Assembly: GCF_016584665.1 (NCBI RefSeq)
Contig: NZ_BBJB01000069.1
Span: forward strand, 1-64,000
DNA: 64,000 nt
DNA from: Pseudanabaena sp. lw0831
GTDB taxonomy: Bacteria; Cyanobacteriota; Cyanobacteriia; Pseudanabaenales; Pseudanabaenaceae
Direction of reading: 5' to 3'
Shown here: positions 1 through 9,192 of the stretch, piece by piece
Position numbering within the stretch: position 1 is the first letter of the stretch
How the letters are laid out: every line of letters starts with the position of its first letter
Notes under the pieces: model-generated
What the model saw: only the letters and a program-made list of their open reading frames with translations
Database searches by the model: none
What the model was told of the DNA's origin: nothing
Position numbers and translations under genes: made by a program

Positions 1-685
1 CAGGATTCTGCTTTGCCAATTCGCGTCTGATCTCTAGAGCCTCCTGATATAGTTGCTCCGCTTGCTTGAGCTTATAATGCTCTTGCAAAAATGCTGCATA
101 TTCAAACAGGTTTTCCCCCGTCCGCGCCGCCCGTAAAGCCTCTTCAAAATATTCGCAAGTTTGCTCTAAACGGTTCGGTTGGTCATAAAAAGTTGCCCAT
201 AGCCGTGCCTTAATTAAAAACTCGTTCGCGATCTGCTCTCTACTGTCCCGTACATTTTCCCTTTGGCGATCCAGTTGCCGCTCCCTCTCGATCAGCTTAT
301 CGAAATCCTCAAGCATCTCCTCCGTCTTCAGCACCGCATCCGCCTCTCGAAATTCCCCGCGATCAAAGTGCGCCCTAGCTAGCCTTAACCGTTCCGTATT
401 AATCTCAATCTTAGTAAAAGTTTCATATAACTTAAAAACGTTACCCTTAATTTCTTCTAACTGCCCCTCCAGTTCTTGCAGGTTTCTCGCAAGTTTTAAA
501 CCCCTTTCTGGTTTAGACGCTTCTTCCAAACTTTCCTGAGTCTCCCGACTCGTCTCCACCAATCTTTGATAATCAACCGATTGCAGATAAATATTTTGCG
601 TGAAATTTTGGGTAACTTGGGCATCGTTGCCAATTACCCCAATATTCGCACCTTGAGCATTAACACTATGTTGAGATTCACTCAT
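1..685 (-). CDS. TPR-repeat protein with N-terminal GANIGVIG motif (3' end outside window)
   Basis: Reading leftward from an ATG at 685, an open frame runs off the window edge, so only the first 228 codons are seen. Residues about 7-20 carry an NAQGANIGVIG segment followed by an Asn/Gln-rich stretch ending QNIY. A Glu/Arg-rich helical region follows, probably coiled coil, and then tetratricopeptide-like helices with the wording EYFEEALRAAR and EQLYQEALEIRRELA. TPR proteins are scaffolds or sensors in bacterial conflict and signalling systems. The gene lies 59 bp downstream of the 745-1158 gene in the same direction, so the two are probably one operon. No enzymatic domain is visible in the part present. 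AAGGA about 13 nt before the ATG is a weak ribosome site. Function unknown; the pairing with its neighbour is the main clue. Confidence 0.75.
   Translation of the reverse strand, partial: MSESQHSVNAQGANIGVIGNDAQVTQNFTQNIYLQSVDYQRLVETSRETQESLEEASKPERGLKLARNLQELEGQLEEIKGNVFKLYETFTKIEINTERLRLARAHFDRGEFREADAVLKTEEMLEDFDKLIERERQLDRQRENVRDSREQIANEFLIKARLWATFYDQPNRLEQTCEYFEEALRAARTGENLFEYAAFLQEHYKLKQAEQLYQEALEIRRELAKQNP
629..665 (-). repeat. Direct repeat encoding the NAQGANIGVIG motif, copy in the TPR gene
   Basis: This 37-bp stretch is nearly identical to 790-826 (a few mismatches). It encodes the motif close to the start of the TPR protein. Identity at silent positions suggests recent duplication or gene conversion. 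Confidence 0.85.
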
Positions 686-8716: not shown

Positions 8717-8769
8717 AAACCCTAAAATAGGGTGGCGACGCTTTGCGTCGCCACCTTATTTTAGGGTTT
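8717..8769. repeat. Hairpin with GGCGACGC tip after ychF
   Basis: AAACCCTAAAATA-GGGTGGCGACGC pairs with GCGTCGCCACC-TTATTTTAGGGTTT. Same foot (AAACCC/GGGTTT) as the 7469 and 9138 hairpins but a different arm. It may help terminate ychF. Confidence 0.8.
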
Positions 8770-8775
8770 GATATA

Positions 8776-8814
8776 AAACAAAAAGACCTAGCCATTGGCT
8801 AGGTCTTTTTGTTT
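8776..8814. terminator. Rho-independent bidirectional terminator
   Basis: AAAAAGACCTAGCCA / TTGGCTAGGTCTTTTT gives a perfect stem with A and T tracts on both sides. It can terminate ychF from the left and the short gene at 8915-8989 from the right. Confidence 0.9.
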
Positions 8815-8914
8815 CGGAATACTTTGTGATCTTTAGGTCACAGTCAACTGCTGGAAGGATCTCAGGTTTACTAGTAAATTAGGCTAGCAAGCTAGAGATA
8901 ATTAACTAAATAAC

Positions 8915-8989
8915 TTACAGAACAGCCCCAGCGCACAGCTCGGAAACCTGAAGACCCATACGTTTACCGTTACTACTATCTGATTGCAT
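8915..8989 (-). CDS. 24-residue peptide gene with its own promoter and terminator
   Basis: On the minus strand, AGGAGG (9003-8998) stands eight bases before ATG 8989, followed by 24 codons and a TAA at 8917-8915. The peptide is Ser/Asn/Gly-rich at its start, has a basic GKRMG centre and ends in a small-residue tail SELCAGAVL with one Cys. An in-frame ATG two codons upstream overlaps the ribosome site and is less likely. A promoter at 9099-9071, a stem (TTCGG/CCGAA) in the leader and the terminator at 8776-8814 make it a self-contained transcription unit. No known family is recognised; it could be a secreted or modified peptide, a small regulator, or a short reading frame inside a structured RNA. 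Confidence 0.6.
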   Translation of the reverse strand: MQSDSSNGKRMGLQVSELCAGAVL

Positions 8990-9070
8990 GGGCATCACCT
9001 CCTGTTATCTAAATATTTATTATCAAGTGTGGTTCGGCTTAACACCGAAGGTTTATTCAACCTGAGACGT

Positions 9071-9099
9071 AATATAGCTGACAAATCAGGATTTGACAA
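9071..9099 (-). promoter_or_regulatory. Sigma-70-type promoter of the 24-codon gene
   Basis: Minus strand: TTGTCA (9099-9094), 17-bp spacer, TATATT (9076-9071). The predicted start near 9064 gives a leader of about 75 nt before the ATG. Confidence 0.6.
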
Positions 9100-9137
9100 T
9101 AGAGATCATATAGCAATGCAAGTTTTGCCTAGGACAT

Positions 9138-9192
9138 AAAACCCAAATAAAGAAAGGCGGCGCATCGCGCCGCCTTTCTTTATTTGGGTTTT
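9138..9192. repeat. GCGGCGC-tip hairpin downstream of the CLC gene
   Basis: AAAACCCAAATAAAGAAAGG with its perfect mirror arm around CGGCGCATCGCGCCG. It abuts the stop codon of the 9196-11799 gene and may terminate it. Confidence 0.85.

What the first reader, a model, noticed from the sequence alone, without database searches (positions are those of the whole stretch)
8776..9099. Complete transcription unit for a 24-residue peptide
Seen: promoter (TTGTCA-17-TATATT), leader stem, AGGAGG eight bases from ATG, 24 codons, stop, terminator. Nothing else is encoded between ychF and the CLC gene. The peptide ends SELCAGAVL with one Cys. Such complete signals on so short a frame are hard to explain by chance. 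It could be a signalling or modified peptide, or a toxin-like or membrane-interacting small protein.
Basis: partly seen in the sequence, partly recalled or inferred. Interest (0 to 1): 0.65.

Follow-up and report, generated by a model that had tools for sequence, protein, structure and literature searches.

The report
Ancient cyanobacterial RNA encoding tiny peptide
A small stand-alone gene found in most groups of oxygen-making bacteria sampled makes an RNA that is both a message for a 24-residue peptide and a folded structure built out of that same message; the gene was noticed in print before, but the overlap of message and fold was not found described in the papers searched.

Summary
In detail: on the minus strand (promoter 9099-9071, SD 9003-8994, ORF 8989-8915, terminator hairpin 8810-8779) there is a complete small gene. 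It is not specific to this genome. A covariance model built here finds it in 193 of 242 genomes of the class, probable Gloeobacter included. It fits the published description of ncl0160 (Brenes-Alvarez 2016, PMC4734099; identity inferred, sequence not seen), so transcript and peptide prediction are not new. New here, as far as my searches reach: (1) spacings between anchors inside the ORF differ only by multiples of three, while the spacing after the stop is random mod 3; (2) codons 8-21 are also the 5' strand of a long-range stem with a 3' domain, with strong compensatory change (15 of 25 pairs; 145 cells against 43 in shuffles); (3) the same ORF segment can instead pair with the start-codon region, and two lineages change all three strands together, which suggests a switch; one row speaks against it. 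The Cys is not conserved and mid-ORF residues are unconstrained, so a signalling, modified or toxin peptide is not favoured. Most likely: a translated, bistable regulatory RNA of unknown target.

The parts
9094..9099 (-). -35 hexamer TTGTCA
   Evidence: motif TTG[TC]CA-15..18-TATA[TG]T found upstream in 23 of 24 genus copies, window included; chance-level as a lone motif
9071..9076 (-). -10 hexamer TATATT (other cyanobacteria show TGTGYTATMTT at a similar place)
9033..9049 (-). leader hairpin TTCGG...CCGAA (seen in Pseudanabaena copies)
8814..9021 (-). stretch matched by covariance model R1 (conserved RNA core, 109 bits)
   Evidence: model built; the window is one of its 67 rows
8994..9003 (-). 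Shine-Dalgarno AGGAGGTGAT, complementary over its length to the 16S rRNA 3' end (recalled sequence)
8915..8989 (-). ORF of 24 codons plus TAA
8987..8992 (-). helix H1, 5' arm CCCAUG (contains the start codon; may extend to 8996)
8955..8960 (-). helix H1, 3' arm UAUGGG (window codons 10-12)
8953..8957 (-). helix H4, 5' arm GGGUC (shares GGG with H1)
8828..8831 (-). helix H4, 3' arm GAUC, four pairs only (GACCC or GAUCC in most relatives)
8945..8950 (-). helix H2, 5' arm CAGGUU inside the ORF
8834..8839 (-). helix H2, 3' arm GACCUA
8937..8940 (-). helix H3a, 5' arm AGCU
8846..8849 (-). helix H3a, 3' arm AGUU
8926..8932 (-). helix H3b, 5' arm GCUGGGG (window codons 20-22)
8850..8856 (-). helix H3b, 3' arm UUCCAGC
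8779..8810 (-). terminator hairpin AAAAAGACCTAGCC..GGCTAGGTCTTTTTG
   Evidence: a terminator-like hairpin follows the 3' domain in 126 of 130 relatives tested, by a simple rule without a chance baseline

Best explanation
This is the Pseudanabaena copy of an ancient cyanobacterial small-RNA gene, almost certainly the one called ncl0160. Its transcript (about 285 nt here, from about 9064, an inferred start, to 8779) is a structured small mRNA. SHOWN by comparison: a 23-24-codon frame kept widely over the class; a nested long-range stem in which ORF codons pair with a 3' domain (H4, H2, H3). PARTLY SHOWN: a terminator hairpin closing the unit; a competing hairpin H1 that pairs the start-codon region with the same ORF bases that H4 uses. 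INFERRED: while only the 5' part exists, or when the 3' domain is engaged elsewhere, H1 closes the AUG; when the 3' domain pairs with the ORF, the SD, AUG and first 7 codons are left open and a ribosome can start; translation then unzips the stem, frees the 3' domain (a UUCCUUCC-type strand able to meet Shine-Dalgarno sequences), and the fold returns when the ribosome leaves. So translation and fold would gate each other, and the RNA, more than the peptide, would be the selected product. Sub-confidences: translated 0.85; long-range stem 0.97; H1/H4 switch 0.5; 3' domain acts in trans 0.25.
For: Frame, 131 distinct copies: ATG-to-TGGG spacing is 22, 25 or 31 (130 rows; one parsed at a wrong anchor), TGGG-to-CTG 26 or 20 (129 rows; one mis-parsed, one without the anchor), whereas stop-to-3' block is 49/40/42 for 0/1/2 mod 3. 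CTG-to-stop (24, 21 or 27) is in frame by definition and adds only that the stop stays in place. Stops 78 TAA, 51 TAG, 2 TGA. Codons 21-23 constrained (omega-like 0.23), codons 2-6 0.36. Long-range stem: on a plain MAFFT alignment of 67 copies 92.9% of cells paired and 145 cells with changes on both sides, against 43.3 in shuffles (0 of 500 reach it) and 13-22 in slid controls; on 99 model-fitted rows 22 of 25 pairs. H3b, H4 and H2 appear in 50, 49 and 43 of 67 single-sequence folds. Three-strand change: L275 (CUC / GAG / GACUC) and L295 (UCC / GGA / GAUCC); Gloeobacterales-like L287, L292 and L293 have CCGA before the ATG and UCGG in the ORF, read by eye. Found in 193 of 242 class genomes.
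Against: H1 shows no covariation in the main alignment: its 5' arm is nearly invariant and all 500 shuffles equal it; it appears in 14 of 67 single-sequence folds. L035 changes GGG to GAG without compensation. Both folds lie within 3 kcal/mol of the optimum in only 13 of 67. In the window itself the long-range fold, when forced, is 9.4 kcal/mol weaker than the optimum (-37.8 against -47.2), which contains H1. For the long-range stem, one of five measures (further pair types) is reached by 35 of 500 shuffles. The frame test rests on few independent indel events. No expression, probing or target data were available. Codons 21-23 look protein-selected, so the peptide may matter more than I allow.
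Confidence: 0.5

Rival explanations
1. The peptide is the product: a conserved 23-24-aa small protein that binds a cellular partner, and the RNA fold only tunes its expression or stability.
For: Frame kept widely over the class; N-terminal SS in most copies and a C-terminal RLCAGAV(A)L even in Gloeobacterales-like copies; third positions vary more than first and second in codons 21-23; very strong SD.
Against: Codons 7-12 unconstrained (0.97); Cys replaced by Arg, Ser, Trp or Tyr; ORF cut to 16 or 17 aa in L087, L277, L281 and L291, which still match the RNA model at 63-122 bits; L067, L070, L079 (same family as the window) and L098 have unrelated C-termini.
Confidence: 0.27
2. A cis-acting leader or attenuator of the genes downstream (pterin dehydratase, porin, cysM), with the micro-ORF as leader peptide.
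For: Of 80 loci with 3 kb downstream, 55 have the porin, 41 the dehydratase, 33 cysM/K, always on the same strand and never the opposite one (loci are not phylogenetically independent); short ORF plus competing helices plus terminator is attenuator-like.
Against: 21 of 80 have none of the three, among them the Pseudanabaena-type loci L088, L106, L115 and L118; in this window the next gene downstream is ychF, convergent; I saw no antiterminator partner for the terminator arm (by eye, no systematic search).
Confidence: 0.13
3. A purely non-coding structured RNA whose ORF is accidental.
For: Many third codon positions are frozen by base pairing; several residues drift freely.
Against: Anchor spacings inside the ORF differ only by multiples of three and stops are kept in three spellings, unlike the adjacent loop.
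Confidence: 0.06

Closest known systems
ncl0160 (sRNA of Synechocystis PCC 6803 and Nostoc PCC 7120; PMC4734099, section 15 read whole, other passages)
   Same: Cyanobacteria-wide RNA (83 homologs, 89 genomes searched, marine picocyanobacteria excluded), 23-25 aa ORF, ATG with a few GTG, ribosome binding site, stops 47 TAA, 34 TAG, 2 TGA; here 78, 51, 2 of 131.
   Different: The text gives the peptide and a predicted structure for one species (figure not seen); overlap of ORF and covarying long-range stem, competing H1, terminator and gene order are not in the parts read. Sequence identity could not be checked.
yfr6 / Downstream-peptide RNA (RF01704; PMC2864571, passages read)
   Same: Cyanobacterial RNA of about 250 nt with a short ORF; indels in multiples of three.
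   Different: There the structured part is the 5' UTR and the ORF follows; here the ORF itself is the 5' strand of the fold. No match at the Rfam gathering score.
Dual-function sRNAs such as SgrS/SgrT (recalled)
   Same: One small transcript with conserved ORF and conserved RNA element.
   Different: In SgrS the coding and pairing parts are separate (recalled); here they are the same bases. No target known.

Membership tests
ncl0160 | ORF of 23-25 aa | tested here: met
   24 aa in the window; 111 of 131 rows 23 aa and 20 of 131 24 aa; some other copies are shorter or longer
ncl0160 | ATG, a few GTG, preceded by a ribosome binding site | tested here: met
   ATG here; GTG in L070, L079, L091; note the search pattern itself requires SD and start
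ncl0160 | stop codon mix TAA > TAG >> TGA | tested here: met
   78/51/2 of 131 against 47/34/2 of 83 in print
ncl0160 | present in most cyanobacteria | tested here: met
   193 of 242 class genomes
ncl0160 | sequence identity to the PCC 6803 or PCC 7120 transcript | not testable with these tools
   Sequence is in supplementary figures (not open here) and in papers not held
Downstream-peptide (RF01704) / yfr6 | match to the covariance model | tested here: not met
   0 matches at gathering in the window; only tRNAs in 12 related loci; RF01704 is not among the sub-threshold lists
type I toxin-antitoxin | hydrophobic membrane-spanning peptide | tested here: not met
   sequence read directly: no hydrophobic run long enough to span a membrane
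type I toxin-antitoxin | overlapping antisense RNA | not tested
   no expression data
Cys-dependent modified or signalling peptide | conserved Cys | tested here: not met
   C in 79 of 107
dual-function sRNA | conserved ORF and conserved RNA structure in one transcript | tested here: met
   (by sequence comparison only)
dual-function sRNA | base-pairing target in trans | not tested
   no target search was run

The most novel reading that the evidence does not exclude
An ancestral regulator of oxygenic cyanobacteria in which one stretch of RNA is at once codons, a lock on its own start codon, and the lid over an anti-Shine-Dalgarno 3' domain: ribosomes translating the micro-ORF decide which fold forms, so the RNA reports translational capacity and passes it on to target mRNAs or to ribosomes.
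Probability: 0.15. Interest if true: 0.88.

Novelty: new variant of a known kind. Interest (0 to 1): 0.62.

Why it matters
A gene this widespread in the class, down to what is probably Gloeobacter, without an Rfam 15 match in what I tested and without a role that I could find, is an open question that the structure makes testable. If the switch is real, it is a compact case of coding sequence and regulatory fold evolving on the same bases, and it ties a peptide message to an RNA decision. It also warns annotators: calling it only an sRNA or only a peptide gene would miss half of what is conserved.

Tried and rejected
Rejected: a known Rfam family, tRNA and tmRNA models included (two searches gave only matches far below gathering scores); known protein family; pure ncRNA; Cys-based peptide chemistry; transcription attenuator as sole role. 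The CCGTTTAGG box upstream of the SD was compared by eye with the 3' CTAGACC on the alignment; it did not covary and was dropped. The Anaerolineales hit L138, the only one of 115 titles not cyanobacterial, has an unrelated peptide and no 3' block; taken as chance. One match outside the class (G136, 27.8 bits) was not examined. Same-genus G025 has no match at E 0.001 and a different gene next to ychF; loss or assembly gap not resolved. A weak match in family f2 (L296, E 0.0069) was read but not followed up.

Dropped before counts: one search left out 13 rows whose 3' block scored under the cut (L070, L079, L138, L098, L141, L091, L198, L144, L067, L087, L235, L083, L161; several of these do have one). 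The start pattern fixes SD, start and AGTAGTA, so their conservation is not counted as evidence. A1 holds 67 of those 131 rows: 3' block within 165 nt of the SD and past a redundancy filter. A2 has 99 rows from 98 loci, one of them a spurious minus-strand row of L156, and is fitted to the structure. The omega-like values are nearest-neighbour counts (83 pairs of 102 ORFs), not a likelihood fit. The H1 search takes the best match without a chance baseline. In one search the ORFs of L067, L070 and L079 are cut by the local alignment; full lengths are.

Literature: ncl0160 occurs in one held paper; the peptide motif in none; further searches. PMC4734099: section 15 and passages; PMC5126843, PMC2864571 and PMC5521070: passages only; the others: search listings. 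Mitschke 2011 and Kopf 2014 not held.

Full report
OBSERVATION. The unit is on the minus strand. The promoter match is not significant alone; what makes the unit real is conservation. DNA of 8830-9110 matches in 45 of 58 genomes, the window's own included, and the peptide in 24 of 26 genus genomes including this one (G006 is cut by a contig end, G025 has none). All 24 intact genus copies keep the 24-codon frame, with 12 distinct ORFs, 6 synonymous and 7 non-synonymous changes where 50 and 166 are possible, while the loop after the stop varies from 4 to 64 nt.

DISTRIBUTION. A covariance model from 67 copies finds 193 of 242 class genomes, 107 of 120 genera, the window's own included. Of the 49 misses 20 are listed: 8 in family f2 (small genomes, probably the marine Prochlorococcus/Synechococcus group), 7 in f17, 5 elsewhere. 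In a phylum sample 61 of 156 match, 60 in the class and one weak match outside it.

FRAME. In 131 distinct copies the distances ATG-to-TGGG (22, 25, 31) and TGGG-to-CTG (26, 20) differ only by multiples of three, apart from one row parsed at a wrong anchor and one without the CTG anchor; between the stop and the 3' block they are spread evenly over the three residues (49, 40, 42). That is the signature of translation, though only a handful of independent indel events stand behind it. Constraint on residues is patchy: strong at codons 21-23 (AVL), moderate at 2-6 (SS) and 16-20, weak at 13-15, absent at 7-12. In L087 and L144 (named Thermosynechococcus; L153, so named too, keeps 23 codons), in the probable S. 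elongatus (where TGA stands at the Cys codon and AGTVL-stop still follows), and in L277 and L291 the ORF ends after 16 or 17 codons.

FOLD. Codons 8 to 21 (numbering of the 23-codon form) hold the 5' strand of a nested stem with a domain 3' of the stop: H4 GGGUC/GACCC, H2 CAGGUUGAA/UUCAACCUG, H3 GGCU and GCCGGGG with UUCCGGC-AGUC, leaving the bases around the Cys codon as a bulge. On the MAFFT alignment 15 of 25 pairs have double changes (shuffles 10.3), 145 cells against 43.3 (sd 6.4), and slid versions give 13 to 22 cells; the count of further pair types is weaker (38 against 34.9, reached by 35 of 500 shuffles). On the larger, model-fitted set it is 22 of 25 pairs. Single-sequence folding recovers H3b, H4, H2 and H3a in 50, 49, 43 and 26 of 67, and H1 in 14. 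In the window alone the forced long-range fold is 9.4 kcal/mol above the optimum, so here the case rests on the relatives.

SWITCH. The GGG of H4 can also pair with CCC just before the start codon (H1: CCCAUG/CAUGGG). In the main alignment H1 pairs in 88% of cells (slid versions 28-49%) but its 5' arm does not vary, so this is no test of covariation. Rare lineages test it: in L275 the three strands read CUC, GAG and GACUC; in L295 UCC, GGA and GAUCC; Gloeobacterales-like copies have CCGA with UCGG, by eye. L079 carries a longer ORF and still has an 11-nt match to its start region. L035 is a counter-example. Forced folds average -60.0 (long-range) and -59.7 kcal/mol (H1 with H3), but both lie within 3 kcal/mol of the optimum in only 13 of 67. 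I rate the switch at even odds.

NEIGHBOURHOOD. A recurrent order is psbD - this gene - pterin dehydratase - porin - Rrf2 regulator - cysM, all on one strand. Names of these proteins are my reading of the sequences, not a database result. Of 80 loci with 3 kb downstream 55 have the porin and none has these genes reversed; of 123 with at least 250 nt upstream 62 have psbD. The Pseudanabaena-type loci L088, L106, L115 and L118, which have enough flank, have none of the downstream three, so the RNA is kept without them. A terminator-like hairpin closes the unit in 126 of 130.

COMPARISON. PMC4734099 (section 15 read) describes ncl0160 in terms that fit in every respect I could count. I therefore treat the gene and its peptide prediction as known, though the identity is inferred. 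Searches for ncl0160 and for the peptide motif found nothing further in the held library, and I found no Rfam, Pfam or NCBIfam family for it. The overlap of frame and fold, and the possible three-strand switch, are what this work adds.

VERDICT. A real, ancient, already noticed gene with an architecture unreported as far as searched. Interest 0.62.

Noticed in passing
window 9108-9188 (and 8720-8766): Long palindromes flank the unit; the stretch 9108-9150 has 34 further matches elsewhere in this genome (REP or MITE-like).
   Followed up: partly
L281 and L282, about position 1534 (probable Synechococcus elongatus): The Cys codon of the ORF is TGA, followed in frame by AGTVL and a second TGA; the otherwise conserved C-terminus lies behind a stop.
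   Followed up: partly
L137 and many other loci: psbD - small RNA gene - pterin dehydratase - porin - Rrf2 - cysM order on one strand recurs in distant cyanobacteria.
   Followed up: partly
G136:C14:104384-104486: Single covariance-model match (27.8 bits) in a genome of the phylum outside the window's class.
   Followed up: no
L296 (G188:C1:2018512-2018660): Weak match (E 0.0069) in family f2: MSSSCLTQGLLIAENAG behind GGAGGAGGTGTCC, perhaps a relic or relative in the small-genome group.
   Followed up: partly
L302 (G025): A same-genus genome without the gene has a TauE/SafE-like gene (own reading) beside ychF instead.
   Followed up: partly
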